Shown here piece after piece: positions 28,945 through 35,675 of a stretch of DNA of 43,101 bases. Both the position numbers and the translations under genes were made by a program. Every line of letters begins with the position of its first letter. Positions within the stretch are counted from its first letter, which is position 1. Under the pieces are notes generated by a model. The model did not search any database and had not been told where the DNA came from. It saw nothing but the letters and a program-made list of their open reading frames with translations. The stretch comes from a virus: positions 1 through 43,101 of the IMG/VR virus record IMGVR_UViG_3300044712_001233; one strand, 5' to 3'.

Positions 28945-28973
28945 TTGACTTGATTAAAGAATTATGATAATCT
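28945..28973 (+). promoter_or_regulatory. Strong sigma70 promoter for the MazG-like gene
   Basis: TTGACT at 28945-28950, exactly 17 bp, then TAATCT at 28968-28973 with TGA before it (extended -10). AAAGGAG follows and the ATG is at 28991, so the leader is only about 10 nt. It lies in the 173-bp divergent gap right of the tape-measure gene. Confidence 0.65.
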
Positions 28974-28990
28974 ATTCTAAAGGAGTATTT

Positions 28991-29593
28991 ATGAACCCTA
29001 AAGAATACGTAGCTAATGTGTTAAAAACAGAAACAAACGATCAAACTGCCATAACCAATAGGGCTAAGTCTAAGAGAGGAATTAGACTCATTCATGCAGT
29101 ATTAGGGCTTTCTTCAGAAATGGCAGAAGTTATGGATTTAACTCATAAATTGATAGATAATACACACCTAAAAGAAGAAATGGGAGATTTATATTGGTAT
29201 ACAGGATTGATTATCGACGAACTTCAATTAGATCCTAATGAAATTTACCAAAAATATGACTTTAGCGGAACTCCAGAAAATGTTAGAGGGTCAGCCGTCA
29301 ACCTAATAGTAAGCACTATTGGAGAATTAGTAGTACATGTAGGAGAAATATCCGACATCCTAAAGAAAGAAATATTTTACGATAGAACAATTGATCCCGA
29401 AGTAGTGAAATTGAAATTAAAACAAATAGATTACTGTATAAGTTTTATCCTACATTTAAGATTCATGACCTCTGAACAAGCTATGAAGTCTAATATTGCT
29501 AAATTAAAATTCCGCTATCCGCATAAATTTACAGAACAAAGTGCTCTAAATAGAGACCTAGAAGGCGAAAGAAAAATTTTAGAACAAGAATAG
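28991..29593 (+). CDS. MazG-like NTP pyrophosphohydrolase with degenerate second repeat
   Basis: I chose the ATG at 28991 (200 residues), preceded by AAAGGAG; an in-frame ATG at 28964 lies within the promoter. GLSSEMAEVMDL and LKEEMGDLYWYTG give the ExxE and ExxD metal-binding pattern of all-alpha NTP pyrophosphatases, which hydrolyse (d)NTPs, or (p)ppGpp in some phage cases, to monophosphates. The end (NIAKLKFRYPHKF, then ALNRDLEGERK) is typical of the family. Between them, residues about 100-165 (STIGELVVHVGEISDILKKE, LKLKQIDYCISFILHL) look like a second copy that has lost most acidic residues. Its promoter and opposite strand set it apart from its neighbours. Confidence 0.8.
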   Translation: MNPKEYVANVLKTETNDQTAITNRAKSKRGIRLIHAVLGLSSEMAEVMDLTHKLIDNTHLKEEMGDLYWYTGLIIDELQLDPNEIYQKYDFSGTPENVRGSAVNLIVSTIGELVVHVGEISDILKKEIFYDRTIDPEVVKLKLKQIDYCISFILHLRFMTSEQAMKSNIAKLKFRYPHKFTEQSALNRDLEGERKILEQE

Positions 29594-29594
29594 G

Positions 29595-29834
29595 TTAATC
29601 AAATAAATTATCTTTATCTAATTGGGCCTCATAGTCATTGAGGTTAATTTCCTCTCCATCAAATTCTTCATTTCGTATATCGGGAAACTCACTGTTTAAA
29701 ATAGTTTCCCAGAGTTCAATAAGGTGATCAATTTTTTTCTGATCTTGGGAGGCATTTAAAATTTTTGATATTTTATTAAATGTTGTATTATTATCTATTT
29801 TTTTCTGTTTCCAGTCGCTGCAAATTTTACACAT
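29595..29834 (-). CDS. Small acidic protein with N-terminal CxxC
   Basis: 79 residues from the ATG at 29834 (MCKICSDWKQKK...), behind AGGAC. It is helical and acidic, especially at the C-terminus (DGEEINLNDYEAQLDKD). The CKIC pair could bind metal but there is no second pair. It is the last gene of the minus-strand run here and ends one base past the convergent MazG stop. I do not recognise the family. Confidence 0.55.
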   Translation of the reverse strand: MCKICSDWKQKKIDNNTTFNKISKILNASQDQKKIDHLIELWETILNSEFPDIRNEEFDGEEINLNDYEAQLDKDNLFD

Positions 29835-29841
29835 AAAAGTC

Positions 29842-30987
29842 CTAATGAAAATCAGTATTATTTTTATCTGCTAAATAGTCTTCTGAGACCCATTTCAATG
29901 CTTGCTTTTGTCCATTTTTATCATATTCTTTTCGACTTTTAATTACGATACCTTCGCGAACTAACTGTGACGGACAGAAAACGCTAGGCCCTTTAGTCAA
30001 AGAATAGGCGAGTTCACGATTAAACGGCCCTCTATAAAGGACGGGTACGAACTCAAATCCTCTATCTTTAGCATATTTTTCTACTTCTTCTGGATTAAGC
30101 CATCGACTTCCATTGGAATCTACTATTTTGACATCAAATAATAAAAATTTATGTCCGTCTAGACCATACTCATAATTCTTTTGAATTGATTTTCCAATTA
30201 TTTCTCCGAAAATAATTTCTCCAAATTGCATTTTATTAAAAGCGTCTATTTCTTTAAAACATGCTCCATAAACATCTTCTCCATAAAATCCTTTATAGTC
30301 TGATTTGGCAGAAATATCTACATTATTGCTTCCGTATCCGATTTCAAATTCTGGCGCCATTCTTAAAAACTTTTTTATTTTTTTCCAAAAAGTATTTGCA
30401 ATAAAAGGTAATTTGTATGCCCTTGCATTTGTACCATGAACTTTCTCTTCAATAATTACTTCATGTTGTTCATCAAATTTATTCGGAAACCATTTTATAT
30501 TCTCTACTCCTCCATATTTACTAAAGAGTGGATGAGAATCTTTTTGTTTTTTAGAGGTCGACACTCCTAAATTGGCGCCTTTAAATTCTGGCTCGGGAGG
30601 TTCATATTTCTTAATACTTAAAAATAAAGACAGATCTGTTTCTAAAGGAATTTGGTCTAAATTTATAATGGAAGATAATTCTGAAGGATTAACTATCATA
30701 CCCTGAGAAGCTAGGCCCCGTATACGAATTTGCCTCACTCGATGATTGTGAAGTTTGATCTTACTATCTTCTGGGAATAAAATCTTTTCAATATTTTCTG
30801 GTAAAATAGAATCAATGGGAACATAAATTATTTTAGACCCTACTACATATTTATCTTTAGGTATAATTACCTGAAATCCATAAACTGTAGCTACCAATAA
30901 TCTATCGGCATTATTATGTGGCTGAATATCTAAAATTGTAGTATAAGGAACTTTGTAACCACTATTGTCTTGATCTAAATTTTCCAT
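29842..30987 (-). CDS. RNA ligase, Rnl5/DRB0094-like
   Basis: 381 residues from the ATG at 30987, which overlaps the kinase stop as TAATG and has GGAGGG upstream; a longer frame start at 31038 would run into the kinase gene. Nucleotidyltransferase motif I is EKVHGTNA with Lys182 the expected adenylated residue. Motif IV is REGIVIKS and motif V ALKWVSEDYL. Residues 1-120 form a beta-rich N-terminal part that fits the OB-type domain found before the ligase core in DRB0094-like ligases. It would seal 3'-OH and 5'-phosphate RNA ends. Directly downstream of a kinase-phosphatase, this makes an RNA end-healing and sealing pair. Confidence 0.85.
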   Translation of the reverse strand: MENLDQDNSGYKVPYTTILDIQPHNNADRLLVATVYGFQVIIPKDKYVVGSKIIYVPIDSILPENIEKILFPEDSKIKLHNHRVRQIRIRGLASQGMIVNPSELSSIINLDQIPLETDLSLFLSIKKYEPPEPEFKGANLGVSTSKKQKDSHPLFSKYGGVENIKWFPNKFDEQHEVIIEEKVHGTNARAYKLPFIANTFWKKIKKFLRMAPEFEIGYGSNNVDISAKSDYKGFYGEDVYGACFKEIDAFNKMQFGEIIFGEIIGKSIQKNYEYGLDGHKFLLFDVKIVDSNGSRWLNPEEVEKYAKDRGFEFVPVLYRGPFNRELAYSLTKGPSVFCPSQLVREGIVIKSRKEYDKNGQKQALKWVSEDYLADKNNTDFH

Positions 30988-31856
30988 TAAAAATTGCCCT
31001 CCGAACATTGTAAACAAGTAAAACCTCTTCGACGCCACATATCACAAACACGTTTTCGATCATCGATAAAAAACACGGGTTCATAACGAGTTAAAATCTC
31101 AAAATCCAAAATAATCTCTTTAATTATATCATCTCTACGAGAATCTTTATTGTGTCTCATAAACAAATCATCGTGGGTTATTTTATTTTTCTGTAACCAC
31201 TGTTTAGTCACCTCTCTATAAGTATCATGACGCCCAGAACATAAAACTATCGAATATAAATTACTTACTCCATATAAAATATCCCTACACCATTCATTTA
31301 CAGAATCTTCGGGAATTTCTTCAAAAAATTTGTCCCATCTTTTATTACCATTTTGAACATAATGTAATCTATGATCGATATTACAAATCGTACCGTCTAA
31401 ATCAAAACACGCGGCCTTAATTTTCTCATTATTTGGCCAAATTCTTTCTACTTCATCCGCTTCCCAATCTTCCACCCTTTCATATCTATTAAAAAACATG
31501 TCTAGAGCACTTTTCGCCGACGTATAATCTTTAATAGTCTCATGATTAACTCTAGTTAACATTCTTTCCATACAAGTATTATAAGATTCATGTAGGACAA
31601 TAATTTTAGTATGATAATTCCCCAATTTTTTAGCTAAACTTAAATATCGAATTCTTTGAATGGCGTCAAAATTCATTCTGTCTACTATAACATTTTTGCC
31701 CGATTTCATAGCTTCTTCAAAAAGAATTTTATGGAATTGTCCCTGCGAATCTTGATTAATATAAATAAAATTTTTTTCAATATATTTTTTAGCTAAAGTT
31801 GATTTACCAGAACCTGGCGGACCAACTAATAAAATGAGTGTAGATTTACCGTCCAT
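30987..31856 (-). CDS. Polynucleotide kinase / 3'-phosphatase
   Basis: 289 residues from the ATG at 31856 behind GGTGAA. The N-terminal kinase has a Walker A loop VGPPGSGKST (residues 11-20), and NVIVDRMNF near 55-63. The C-terminal HAD phosphatase starts at FDLDGTI (Asp152, Asp154), with LCSGRHDTYRE and FFIDDRKRVCDMW as later motifs. This is the kinase-phosphatase order of the T4 Pnkp type: it phosphorylates 5'-OH and removes 3'-phosphate or 2',3'-cyclic phosphate. It is coupled to the ligase by TAATG and overlaps the preceding HAD gene by 11 bp. The likely role is repair of tRNA cut by host anticodon nucleases. Confidence 0.9.
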   Translation of the reverse strand: MDGKSTLILLVGPPGSGKSTLAKKYIEKNFIYINQDSQGQFHKILFEEAMKSGKNVIVDRMNFDAIQRIRYLSLAKKLGNYHTKIIVLHESYNTCMERMLTRVNHETIKDYTSAKSALDMFFNRYERVEDWEADEVERIWPNNEKIKAACFDLDGTICNIDHRLHYVQNGNKRWDKFFEEIPEDSVNEWCRDILYGVSNLYSIVLCSGRHDTYREVTKQWLQKNKITHDDLFMRHNKDSRRDDIIKEIILDFEILTRYEPVFFIDDRKRVCDMWRRRGFTCLQCSEGNF

Positions 31857-32382
31857 CTTTTTTCACCTTTTTCTTTTTTTCTAATATGGTTGGTTTATTC
31901 TGATCTTTTATTTTCTTAATTGCTTCTACAACTAATGGTAAAGTTAATCCAGTTTCCCAGGTAGTGTGGACGAAATGTTCTTTCCCGTGATAATAGGAGA
32001 TGCCATCGTCATTGTCATCTATAGCAATATAGCCCTTAGTATCGGGATGCTCTTTAAGCCATATATCGATCTCTCTACCTCTTTCACTGGAAAAAGTATT
32101 CGGCGTTATTCCTATTACTCTAGAAGAATCTATTCCATAAGATCTCAATTTATCTTTAAGCCATCCTAAAGGATATAAATTCCTCCACGCAGAAGAAATG
32201 ACTATTTTAGAGTTCGGAAAAGTTTCTAAAATTGATTGAAAATTTGAAGTGCAAACATTGCAAAATGTTTCATTTACTGGACCTAAATCTTCTTCTGGAC
32301 GTGATTTACGTTTTCTATCCTCATATAAAAATGAGGCCGCTGAATTTAATACTCCGTCAAAATCTAAAAAAATTACAAACAT
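31846..32382 (-). CDS. HAD phosphatase of the RNA-repair-associated type
   Basis: 178 residues from the ATG at 32382 behind AGAGGG. The HAD motif I is FLDFDGVLN (Asp7, Asp9), motif II VISSAWR, and a late acidic motif IAIDDNDDG. The DGVLN...S-x-WR pattern is what I recall for HAD domains found with RNA-repair proteins in conflict systems (Burroughs and Aravind's HAD-SAK group). The C-terminal tail is basic (EKKKKVKKDGR). Its place directly before the kinase-ligase pair supports an end-processing role, perhaps on 2'- or 3'-phosphates. The specific substrate is unknown. Confidence 0.75.
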   Translation of the reverse strand: MFVIFLDFDGVLNSAASFLYEDRKRKSRPEEDLGPVNETFCNVCTSNFQSILETFPNSKIVISSAWRNLYPLGWLKDKLRSYGIDSSRVIGITPNTFSSERGREIDIWLKEHPDTKGYIAIDDNDDGISYYHGKEHFVHTTWETGLTLPLVVEAIKKIKDQNKPTILEKKKKVKKDGR

Positions 32383-33150: not shown

Positions 33151-33771
33151 TCACTTATAAATAAGTTGAGGTCCCCTTTCTATCATTTGTAATATTTTTT
33201 CATGAGAGACAGGTTTAAAATCCCAAACATCACACCCTACGTTAATTTGCTTCCCATTTTGTATCCAAGCATTGTGAACGTGTCCATGTATTAACCAAGA
33301 ATTGCCATCGTTTACCATTCTTTTATGCATATATCGCATATCAATATATTGATTATTTAAATATTCTATTTTTATTTTTTCTTGGCCATCCTCATCTGTA
33401 AATTTTTGAAATGAAGACATAGGATGAAATGGATAATGACTTAAAAATATTTTTTGCCTATTCCCTATTTCTATCCAAATATTCTCTTTTACTTCTTGAA
33501 ATCCTACCTCCAACATTCTGTGAGCAGCCTTATCGTGATTTCCTAAAATCAAAATCTTATTACCATTCATTCTAGGGATCAAATGTTTTAGTAGGGAATA
33601 TCCGCACATCCCTACGTCTCCCAAAATATAAGCATTTTCATTAGATTTAACTCTGTCATTCCAATTACTAATAATGGTTTCATGCATTTCATGTAAATTT
33701 TGAAATGGACGACCGCACATTTTGATTACATTCTTATGAAAAAAATGAAAATCCGATGAAAGCCAAATCAT
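33151..33771 (-). CDS. Metallophosphoesterase
   Basis: 206 residues from the ATG at 33771 (MIWLSSDFHFFHKN), preceded by AGAGGTAAT; an upstream frame start at 33807 would overlap the previous gene. All calcineurin-like metal motifs are present: D-x-H in SSDFHFF, GD in ILGDVGM, GNHD in LILGNHDK, a His in LSHYPFH and GHVH in WLIHGHVHN. It should hydrolyse phosphomono- or diesters with two metals. Small stand-alone members include 2',3'-cyclic phosphodiesterases and phosphatases. Near an RNA-repair cluster it may open cyclic phosphates, but that is inference. Confidence 0.85.
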   Translation of the reverse strand: MIWLSSDFHFFHKNVIKMCGRPFQNLHEMHETIISNWNDRVKSNENAYILGDVGMCGYSLLKHLIPRMNGNKILILGNHDKAAHRMLEVGFQEVKENIWIEIGNRQKIFLSHYPFHPMSSFQKFTDEDGQEKIKIEYLNNQYIDMRYMHKRMVNDGNSWLIHGHVHNAWIQNGKQINVGCDVWDFKPVSHEKILQMIERGPQLIYK

Positions 33772-33772
33772 A

Positions 33773-34192
33773 TTACCTCTTTTTATCACAAACAGAACAA
33801 AATTCAAATGATTCTCTAAATCCTTGATATGTTACCCATTTATGTCCCTGAGAACATTTATCTGTTTGATGTCTGCGGGTAGGCAAAATAGGATCTCCAT
33901 ACGAAGGATCAAATTTACCAAAAGATCTATTGGGATCGAACTCTACCGCTATATCTCCATTGTCGCTCGCTATAAAATTTGAATTTCTCGTCGACATATC
34001 TAAAACCCATTCATCCCAAGTTTCACTTTCCCAATAATAATCTACCATTCCAGACGGTCTGTTATGCCAATTAATGCCGTATCTTATGTCATTTAAATTA
34101 GTTATATGATTAACAGTTTTATCAGCACTTACGATAGTTCCAGTTTGAAGAGTGGTTATTGCGATTATTGTATCTCCGGCCAAAAATCCCAT
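33773..34192 (-). CDS. Unknown protein with C-terminal zinc-binding motif
   Basis: 139 residues from the ATG at 34192. The N-terminus (GDTIIAITTLQTGTIVSA) looks like a small beta-barrel. The C-terminus has C-x4-H-x-W...F-C-x2-C (CSQGHKWVTYQGFRESFEFC, then SVC), a likely zinc site. The middle is rich in Trp, Tyr and Asp (DYYWESETWDEWVLD). I do not know the family. It lies between the metallophosphoesterase and HNH genes with very short gaps. Confidence 0.55.
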   Translation of the reverse strand: MGFLAGDTIIAITTLQTGTIVSADKTVNHITNLNDIRYGINWHNRPSGMVDYYWESETWDEWVLDMSTRNSNFIASDNGDIAVEFDPNRSFGKFDPSYGDPILPTRRHQTDKCSQGHKWVTYQGFRESFEFCSVCDKKR

Positions 34193-34194
34193 GA

Positions 34195-34782
34195 TTATTC
34201 CCTTTTCATATCTTCTTTTGTTTTCTTCTTATGACAAGTATAGCATATCACTTGATGGTTTGACAAGCCTATGGAAGGCCCTCCTTTATAGATAGGAATT
34301 ATGTGGTCCACCTCAGGATTAAATTGGCTAGGAACACGAGTCTTCATACTTGTATATACGGACCAATCGAAATGGGAGGAAAGATTTTGTTCCATTTCTC
34401 TTAATTTATTTAAATTGTCTGTAAGTGGCGTAAGCATTTGATTTTTCGATATCCAGTCTGTGATATCATGTATCCTTCTTTTTAAGCTCTGTTCAATAAA
34501 TGGCCTATAATCATAGCCACAAATATTACATTTAAAATTTTGTTTAATTAATAAAGTTCCCATTCCATGTACAGACTGCGGATTAGCCCAAGTAAAAGCG
34601 TTCTCTCCACACTCATCGGAGCAATATTTTTTTCTAGATTTTGGAAGTTCTTTTAAACACCAAATACATTTCTTAACATTATTAATAATAAGAGCACTAA
34701 GTTCAGAAAGATTATATCTTCTGTCTGTAGTGCTCTTTTCTAACTCTTCCAATTGTGAATTTTGATAATGCTTATAAATCAT
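34195..34782 (-). CDS. HNH endonuclease
   Basis: 195 residues from the ATG at 34782, coupled to the SPFH stop as TAATG. Residues 38-55 hold a zinc finger (CIWCLKELPKSRKKYCSDEC). A second knuckle CNICGYDYRP follows near residue 95. The HNH core is EVDHIIPIYKGGPSIGLSNH, then VICYTCHKKKT: the catalytic His is in VDHI, Asn in LSNH, with CxxC-type zinc holding. Gene position does not suggest an intron or an inserted homing element, so it may be a free-standing homing nuclease or serve phage DNA metabolism or host DNA breakdown. Confidence 0.85.
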   Translation of the reverse strand: MIYKHYQNSQLEELEKSTTDRRYNLSELSALIINNVKKCIWCLKELPKSRKKYCSDECGENAFTWANPQSVHGMGTLLIKQNFKCNICGYDYRPFIEQSLKRRIHDITDWISKNQMLTPLTDNLNKLREMEQNLSSHFDWSVYTSMKTRVPSQFNPEVDHIIPIYKGGPSIGLSNHQVICYTCHKKKTKEDMKRE

Positions 34783-35675
34783 TACTCTTCTTCGTCTCTT
34801 TTAGAATCAGTTTTATTTAAATCAATATTCAATAATAAACCACTATTACCGCCCATAACCTTGGGCAATTGACCATCCCATTTTTTGATATATTCTAATG
34901 ACAAAATATTGCCTGAAATGGTTTGTTTCAACAATTTTTGACTTTCTGCTTGTGCCCGAGCATTGATCAATCTGGATTCCGCATCCCCCTTTGCTTCATT
35001 GACTTTTGCCTTAGCATCTTGAATAGCCTGTAAGGCGGCATATTCTGCCTGTTTTGCCTTTTGCTCCGCAATCTGTTTGGCCTCTACGGCCTCATTAAAC
35101 TCTTTAGTAAAATCTAAATTAACTAAGGAAATATCCTTAACTACCAATCCATACGTAGTCAATCGTTTAACTAACATATCATCGATAGTGGTTTTTAACT
35201 CCATACGTCTAGTTAAAATTTCTTCTGCTGTCAGTTTTGCAGTAGCCGCTTTTAAAACTTCTGAAACGGCCGGCGCGATAACATTATTTTCAATAGCCTC
35301 TTCGTCTCCAACTTCTCTAATCATTTTACCAACAGAATTGGGATCTACCGTCCAGTTCAAGGCTACGGTAGCACCTATTCTTTGTAAATCTTTTGTGGCG
35401 GCCTCTGTCTGATCTTGTGATTTATGAACACGGACAGACATGGTTTTAATATAGCTAACAAAAGGTAATTTAAAATGAGGACCTTCTCCCAAAACTTCTT
35501 CTCCAGTTTTACCAAGAGTGACTCTAATACCTCTTTGTCCCGGACTGACTGTATCAAACGATCCCATAAAAACGAAAAATGCAAATAGTCCTAATACGGT
35601 AAATAGGACAATTTTTTTAATCTTTTTAAATTGAATTTGCAAAACTTCTTCATCATTTTTTTGTTGAAAGCCCAT
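34782..35675 (-). CDS. SPFH/prohibitin-like membrane protein
   Basis: 297 residues from the ATG at 35675, behind AAAGGAG. One N-terminal transmembrane helix (about 22-40, VLFTVLGLFAFFVFMG) is followed by a typical SPFH region: VSPGQRGIRVTLGKTGEEVLGEGPHFKLPFV, then YGLVVKDISLVNLDFTKEF. A long charged coiled coil (about 195-250, with EAKQIAEQKAKQAEY) and a short tail complete it. Cellular members (HflC/K, prohibitins) form ring-like membrane scaffolds that control proteases. In a phage it could shield or organise membrane proteins or modulate FtsH, which is inference. It is coupled to the HNH gene. Confidence 0.85.
   Translation of the reverse strand: MGFQQKNDEEVLQIQFKKIKKIVLFTVLGLFAFFVFMGSFDTVSPGQRGIRVTLGKTGEEVLGEGPHFKLPFVSYIKTMSVRVHKSQDQTEAATKDLQRIGATVALNWTVDPNSVGKMIREVGDEEAIENNVIAPAVSEVLKAATAKLTAEEILTRRMELKTTIDDMLVKRLTTYGLVVKDISLVNLDFTKEFNEAVEAKQIAEQKAKQAEYAALQAIQDAKAKVNEAKGDAESRLINARAQAESQKLLKQTISGNILSLEYIKKWDGQLPKVMGGNSGLLLNIDLNKTDSKRDEEE

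What the first reader, a model, noticed from the sequence alone, without database searches (positions are those of the whole stretch)
29842..32382. Three-gene RNA end-healing and sealing cluster
A HAD phosphatase (FLDFDGVLN), a kinase-phosphatase (GPPGSGKST plus FDLDGT) and an RNA ligase (KVHG, REGIVIKS, LKWVSEDYL) overlap in a coupled operon. T4 uses Pnkp and Rnl1 to repair anticodon-nuclease damage. Here the ligase is Rnl5-like by domain layout rather than T4 Rnl1-like, and an extra HAD enzyme is present. The set may counter host tRNA-cutting defences.
Basis: partly seen in the sequence, partly recalled or inferred. Interest (0 to 1): 0.7.

Follow-up and report, generated by a model that had tools for sequence, protein, structure and literature searches.

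The report
Phage RNA end-repair gene cluster
Three overlapping phage genes encode an enzyme kit that cleans and rejoins broken RNA ends, most likely to undo tRNA cuts made by bacterial defences; kits of this type are already published, but in this phage's relatives the rejoining enzyme has been swapped between two ligase families.

Summary
On the minus strand, three coupled genes encode a HAD_SAK_2 phosphatase, a T4-type polynucleotide kinase/3'-phosphatase (Pnkp) and an Rnl5 (DRB0094-type) RNA ligase. Profiles and an AlphaFold/Foldseek comparison match the ligase full length to Naegleria RNA ligase, not to DNA ligases or capping enzymes. Its motif residues are invariant in 42 sequences. The ligase probably starts at ATG 30987, in a TAATG overlap with the Pnkp stop.

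The window is a fragment of a ~170-kb phage. Seven syntenic relatives all keep Pnkp with a ligase just downstream. That slot alternates: Rnl5 in the window and four relatives, T4-Rnl1-like (PF09511) in three. The types are interleaved on the virion tree, so the ligase was exchanged at least twice. An RlaP repair nucleotidyltransferase lies upstream of Pnkp in four. HAD is optional, and its direct overlap with Pnkp is unique to the window. An essentially complete relative has no tRNA gene, so the target is probably host RNA.

Phage sets of ligase, PNK-HAD, SAK-HAD and RlaP are already published as RNA repair (PMC7824862). This is a new member of a known kind; the ligase exchange is the notable part. 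Substrate and counter-defence role are untested.

The parts
31846..32382 (-). HAD_SAK_2 phosphatase, 178 aa; overlaps the Pnkp start by 11 bp (31846-31856)
   Evidence: Pfam PF18143 3.8e-28; HAD residues D7, D9, S63, R101, D122, D123 invariant in 48 sequences; AF2 model pLDDT 94.5
30987..31856 (-). Pnkp: N-terminal P-loop 5'-kinase plus C-terminal HAD 3'-phosphatase, 289 aa
   Evidence: PF25109 1.2e-31, AAA_33 5e-14; aligns end to end with T4 Pnkp 1ltq, 4.8e-18; K18, D36, R102, D152, D154, R209, D242, K246, D266, R267 invariant in 14 sequences
29842..30987 (-). Rnl5/DRB0094-type RNA ligase, 381 aa from ATG 30987 (the mechanical ORF runs to GTG 31038): N-terminal OB-like module plus C-terminal nucleotidyltransferase domain
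   Evidence: TIGR02306 155.8 bits; PF09414 plus PF21189 OB-fold; Naegleria ligase full length 6e-104; Foldseek top 13 hits are all Naegleria ligase; K182, G185, E262, E345, G346, K365 invariant in 42 sequences
30985..31002 (-). Pnkp/ligase coupling site: GGAGGG (31002-30997) and TAATG (30989-30985)
   Evidence: read directly from the sequence
29595..29834 (-). 79-aa protein of unknown function directly downstream of the ligase; homologues follow the ligase slot in relatives, whichever ligase type fills it
   Evidence: blastp hits in G003, G005, G006, G007 and the same position in G001 and G005 gene lists; no PHROG match
33151..33807 (-). Calcineurin-like phosphoesterase (phrog_547): possible accessory phosphatase, membership in the module not shown
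   Evidence: phrog_547 1e-46; 59% identical homologue 2 kb upstream of HAD in G001, 32% homologue near HAD in G003

Best explanation
This is a phage RNA healing-and-sealing module. When a host ribonuclease cuts an RNA (most likely a tRNA anticodon loop) and leaves 2',3'-cyclic phosphate and 5'-OH ends, Pnkp removes the 3' phosphate and phosphorylates the 5' end. The ligase adenylylates itself on K182, moves AMP to the 5' phosphate and seals the strand. HAD_SAK_2 is a second phosphatase that helps clear blocked ends. Shown by sequence: the enzyme families, intact catalytic residues, translational coupling, conservation of Pnkp plus ligase in a syntenic phage lineage, and exchange of the ligase between Rnl5 and Rnl1-like types in one slot. 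Inferred: that the substrate is RNA rather than DNA, that the RNA is host tRNA, that the purpose is counter-defence, and that HAD acts in the same pathway.
For: Families and motifs. Pnkp orthologue in 7 of 7 syntenic relatives, each with a ligase within 0.7 kb downstream. The slot holds Rnl5 in the window, G002, G004, G006, G007 and a PF09511 (T4 Rnl1-family) ligase in G001, G003, G005; types interleaved on the virion tree, single Rnl1-like clade rejected, AU p 5e-5. Rnl1 of T4 is a tRNA-repair ligase, so its use in the same slot points to RNA. RlaP, a nucleotidyltransferase family named for RNA repair, lies upstream of Pnkp in four relatives. G005, essentially complete, and G001 (169 kb) have no tRNA gene, so the target is probably host RNA. 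A published survey reads the same gene families in jumbo phages as RNA repair (PMC7824862).
Against: Characterised Rnl5 enzymes (Deinococcus, Naegleria) seal 3'-OH/5'-PO4 nicks in duplexes (own knowledge; title of 5cot), and I know of no demonstration that one seals tRNA halves. The kinase lacks the T4 R38 and D85/T86 acceptor residues, so its substrate preference may differ. Host and host nuclease are unknown. HAD is missing from G005 and G007.
Confidence: 0.72

Rival explanations
1. Phage tRNA maturation: the enzymes process the phage's own tRNAs, for example 2',3'-cyclic-phosphate ends left by theta ribozymes, before CCA addition.
For: DRB0094-family ligase is reported enriched 140-fold in theta-ribozyme phages (PMC10879173). 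G006 has 17 tRNA genes. G003 has a CCA-enzyme head domain near the island.
Against: No tRNA gene in the window, in essentially complete G005 or in G001, which all keep the module. No Rfam match other than a tRNA in the window or the island regions searched; whether Rfam holds the theta ribozyme was not checked. A 5'-kinase and a ligase are not needed for 3'-end trimming.
Confidence: 0.08
2. Nick repair in DNA or RNA:DNA: Pnkp heals broken DNA ends, and the ligase seals nicks with a ribonucleotide at the 3'-OH side during replication or repair.
For: Rnl5 enzymes need RNA only on the 3'-OH side and Pnkp acts on DNA too (own knowledge). In Deinococcus a PNK is discussed in DNA end healing (PMC1997131).
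Against: The slot is filled by a T4-Rnl1-family ligase in three relatives. RlaP in four relatives. The ligase profile and fold rank RNA ligases first.
Confidence: 0.12
3. HAD_SAK_2 is a neighbour and not part of the repair pathway; only Pnkp and ligase work together.
For: HAD orthologue absent from G005 and not found in G007 (a fragment) while Pnkp and ligase stay. A second HAD_SAK_2 lies downstream in most relatives. Outside the lineage, closeness to a ligase is marginal: 3 of 25 contigs within 1 kb against 0.7 expected (p 0.03), not significant at 3-10 kb.
Against: Orthologues at 49-53% identity lie 1.6-2.3 kb upstream of Pnkp in five relatives. It overlaps Pnkp directly in the window. HAD adjoins a ligase in three other contigs (G010, G011, G012).
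Confidence: 0.35

Closest known systems
Jumbo-phage RNA repair sets (Iyer et al. 2021, PMC7824862, section 3.4.9)
   Same: RNA ligase with fused PNK-HAD, standalone Swiss-army-knife HAD, RlaP and CCA enzymes, read there as repair of defence-inflicted RNA breaks
   Different: Here a compact coupled operon with an Rnl5 ligase in a phage of about 170 kb; the survey names Rnl1 and Rnl2 as the common families and gives no slot exchange in the passages read
Bacteriophage T4 Pnkp (pseT) and Rnl1
   Same: Pnkp has the same domain order and catalytic residues; healing then sealing of cut tRNA is the model (PMC3400036)
   Different: The ligase is Rnl5, not Rnl1; T4 genes are not adjacent in this way; kinase acceptor motifs differ; extra HAD
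Deinococcus DraRnl (DRB0094) and Naegleria gruberi RNA ligase (Rnl5)
   Same: Full-length sequence and fold match, N-terminal OB-like module
   Different: Motif I is KVHG rather than KxDG; coupled to Pnkp; phage-encoded
Aeromonas phage 44RR2.8t (DRB0094-type ligase, rnlA and pseT within 7 kb)
   Same: A phage already known to carry a DRB0094-type ligase near Pnkp
   Different: It keeps both ligases; the ligases are at most 25% identical over the aligned part; genes not in one overlapping set
Bacterial Pnkp1-Rnl-Hen1 complex (PMC4411300)
   Same: Operon-type healing and sealing of ribotoxin-cut RNA; Pnkp1 is a PDB hit to this Pnkp
   Different: Different ligase and subunits; no Hen1 was identified next to the cluster

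Membership tests
Rnl5 / DRB0094 RNA ligase | Full-length match to the family profile above its curated cut-off | tested here: met
   TIGR02306 155.8 bits, cut-off 151.15, profile 7-339 of 341; three of four lineage orthologues score 126-144 bits, below it, and G007 scores 164.6
Rnl5 / DRB0094 RNA ligase | N-terminal OB-type module before the nucleotidyltransferase domain, as in Naegleria ligase | tested here: met
   PF21189 OB-fold at 34-116; Foldseek to Naegleria ligase over 377-384 columns, TM 0.62-0.74
Rnl5 / DRB0094 RNA ligase | Nucleotidyltransferase motif residues intact | tested here: met
   K182, G185, E262, E345, G346, K365 invariant in 42; motif I is KVHG, H in 15 of 42 and D in 23
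Rnl5 / DRB0094 RNA ligase | Seals 3'-OH/5'-PO4 nicks with RNA on the 3'-OH side | not testable with these tools
   needs enzyme assay
T4-type Pnkp | N-terminal P-loop kinase fused to C-terminal HAD phosphatase | tested here: met
   AAA_33 and HAD_PNKP; end-to-end alignment with 1ltq
T4-type Pnkp | Kinase and phosphatase catalytic residues | tested here: met
   K18, D36, R102 and D152, D154, R209, D242, K246, D266 invariant in 14
T4-type Pnkp | T4-type 5'-OH acceptor residues R38 and D85/T86 (own knowledge of T4 numbering) | tested here: not met
   window reads NQDSQGQ and VDRMN; closer to fungal 9d8a/9drz and mammalian PNKP kinases
HAD_SAK_2 (Swiss-army-knife RNA repair HAD) | Family profile and HAD motifs I-IV | tested here: met
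   PF18143 99 bits, cut-off 27.5; motif residues invariant in 48
HAD_SAK_2 (Swiss-army-knife RNA repair HAD) | Genomic link to RNA repair genes | tested here: inconclusive
   strong in this lineage, marginal elsewhere
Phage tRNA-repair / counter-anticodon-nuclease system | Pnkp and RNA ligase co-encoded and kept together | tested here: met
   8 of 8 lineage contigs including the window
Phage tRNA-repair / counter-anticodon-nuclease system | Restores cleaved tRNA and infection in a nuclease-bearing host | not testable with these tools
   needs infection and biochemical tests

The most novel reading that the evidence does not exclude
Rnl5 and Rnl1-like ligases are functionally interchangeable partners of one phage Pnkp: these phages swap the sealing enzyme in a fixed slot, perhaps to match the kind of RNA break made by the current host's nuclease. 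That would make Rnl5 an in vivo tRNA-repair ligase.
Probability: 0.35. Interest if true: 0.55.

Novelty: new member of a known kind. Interest (0 to 1): 0.38.

Why it matters
To my knowledge the biological role of Rnl5 ligases is not settled. A phage lineage that keeps the healing enzyme and exchanges the sealing enzyme between Rnl5 and Rnl1-like types is a natural experiment on what Rnl5 is for: both ligases can be tested side by side with the same Pnkp on the same broken tRNAs.

Tried and rejected
A single-sequence scan of viral contigs with the ligase found nothing; alignment queries were needed. DNA-level similarity found no close phage. DNA ligase or capping enzyme as identity of the ligase: rejected by profile and fold. 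A general HAD-ligase linkage across phages, suggested at first by co-occurrence in 6-kb flanks, was tested against random placement on whole contigs and is only marginal. Theta-ribozyme link: no Rfam match. An anti-phage defence reading: PADLOC gives only weak P-loop and HNH matches. Bacterial homologues of the ligase are distant (best full-length match 29% identity), so the host was not identified.

Full report
What is there. On the minus strand the window reads HAD (32382-31846), Pnkp (31856-30987), ligase (30987-29842), then a 79-aa gene (29834-29595). HAD and Pnkp overlap by 11 bases. Pnkp and ligase share one base in TAATG, with GGAGGG 9 nt upstream of the ATG. The GTG start at 31038 found by the ORF tool is therefore probably wrong, and the ligase has 381 residues. 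The window is an IMG/VR virus record of 43,101 bases with no tRNA gene and 35.5% GC.

What the proteins are. The ligase matches NCBIfam RNA_lig_DRB0094 over its whole length, just above the curated cut-off. A 47-row profile matches Naegleria gruberi RNA ligase at 6e-104 over the whole chain; T4 Rnl2 (1e-17) and archaeal RNA ligases come far behind, over the catalytic domain only. The AlphaFold model (pLDDT 89.9) gives the same answer by fold: the top 13 Foldseek hits are all Naegleria ligase, then T4 Rnl2. The catalytic residues are invariant in 42 sequences; motif I is KVHG, with H in 15 of the 42 and D in 23. The kinase-phosphatase aligns end to end with T4 Pnkp. Its tested catalytic residues are invariant in 14 sequences, but its acceptor-side kinase motifs differ from T4 and resemble two fungal kinases and mammalian PNKP. 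The HAD is HAD_SAK_2 with intact HAD motifs in 48 sequences and a confident model, but it has no close solved relative.

The phage and its relatives. Virus contigs found with ligase and HAD alignments include seven that share syntenic virion genes with the window. G001, G005 and G006 are 169-177 kb; G002, G003, G004 and G007 are fragments. In G005 one long gene is split across the contig ends with only about five residues missing, so that genome is essentially complete. The window is thus about a quarter of such a genome. All seven carry an orthologue of Pnkp (48-54% identity) and a ligase within 0.7 kb downstream of it.

The ligase slot. In the window, G002, G004, G006 and G007 the slot holds Rnl5 (48-58% identity). 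In G001, G003 and G005 it holds a ligase of PF09511, the T4 Rnl1 family: 67-83 bits against a cut-off of 28.3, but well below the strict T4 RnlA equivalog cut-off. The surroundings are the same: Pnkp on one side, and on the other the homologue of the 79-aa gene, peptide deformylase and a second HAD_SAK_2, though not every flank gene was found in every contig. On a tree of four virion proteins the two ligase types are interleaved: three changes on the best tree, at least two forced by well-supported branches, and a single Rnl1-like clade rejected (AU p 5e-5). The Pnkp tree also rejects it (p 0.01). So the sealing enzyme has been exchanged while the healing enzyme stayed. Eight contigs are few, and the direction of change is unknown.

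Other members. RlaP, a nucleotidyltransferase family named for RNA repair, lies between HAD and Pnkp in G001, G003 and G006 and upstream of Pnkp in G007; it was not found in the window, G002, G004 or G005. The HAD orthologue is near the island in five relatives; G005 and G007 have only the more distant second copy. Outside the lineage, HAD_SAK_2 lies within 1 kb of a ligase in 3 of 25 contigs that have both (0.7 expected, p 0.03) and is not significantly close at 3-10 kb. I therefore treat Pnkp plus ligase as the core and HAD as a likely but unproven member.

How it probably works. T4 uses Pnkp to turn 2',3'-cyclic-P/5'-OH ends into 3'-OH/5'-P, and Rnl1 to seal cut tRNA-Lys (PMC3400036). The same chemistry is expected here. 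Support for RNA rather than DNA comes from the Rnl1-like replacement and from RlaP. Support for host rather than phage RNA comes from the absence of tRNA genes in G005 and G001, although G006 has 17. A published survey of jumbo phages lists these same families (RNA ligases, PNK-HAD, standalone Swiss-army-knife HAD, RlaP, CCA enzymes) and reads them as repair of defence-inflicted RNA breaks (PMC7824862). That makes the present cluster a new member of a known kind. The main limit is that characterised Rnl5 enzymes seal nicks in duplexes (own knowledge), so sealing of an anticodon loop by this ligase is inference.

Rivals. Maturation of phage tRNAs, suggested by the enrichment of DRB0094 ligases in theta-ribozyme phages (PMC10879173), is disfavoured by genomes that have the module but no tRNA gene. 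Nick repair in DNA or RNA:DNA is possible for Rnl5 and Pnkp but explains the Rnl1-like exchange and RlaP poorly. Whether HAD is a mere neighbour remains open.

Verdict. Observation confirmed, with a corrected ligase start. Interpretation partly supported. The system is ordinary in kind; its one notable feature is the repeated exchange of the ligase family in a fixed slot.

Noticed in passing
L002 (Tunturiibacter phage Tunturi_5), 3068-8395: A HAD_SAK_2 relative (35% identical) lies between two separate genes annotated as NAD-dependent DNA ligase (388 and 317 aa ORFs), which look like the front and back parts of a split ligase.
   Followed up: no
L170 3687-6360 and L168 (contig G006): One relative has 17 tRNA genes (15 in one array) while two other relatives of similar size have none.
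   Followed up: partly
L192 5890-6717 (G005) and G001:78677-79249: G005 and G001 carry a second RNA ligase (PF09414) elsewhere in the genome.
   Followed up: no
L163 18222-18713, L190 6182-6664, L083 5276-5758, L180 13230-13727: A peptide deformylase gene sits just downstream of the repair island in most relatives.
   Followed up: no
window 28964-29593 (+): A MazG-like pyrophosphatase gene on the opposite strand directly follows the repair operon; only G005 has a weak homologue.
   Followed up: no
window 34782-35675 (-): SPFH/Band 7 protein (Pfam 4.5e-32, phrog_200) in the same strand run, upstream of the repair genes.
   Followed up: no
window 30987-31856 (-): The kinase domain's best PDB relatives by sequence are two fungal kinases (9d8a, 9drz) that share its unusual DR.NFD..QR motif; no paper describing them was found.
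   Followed up: partly
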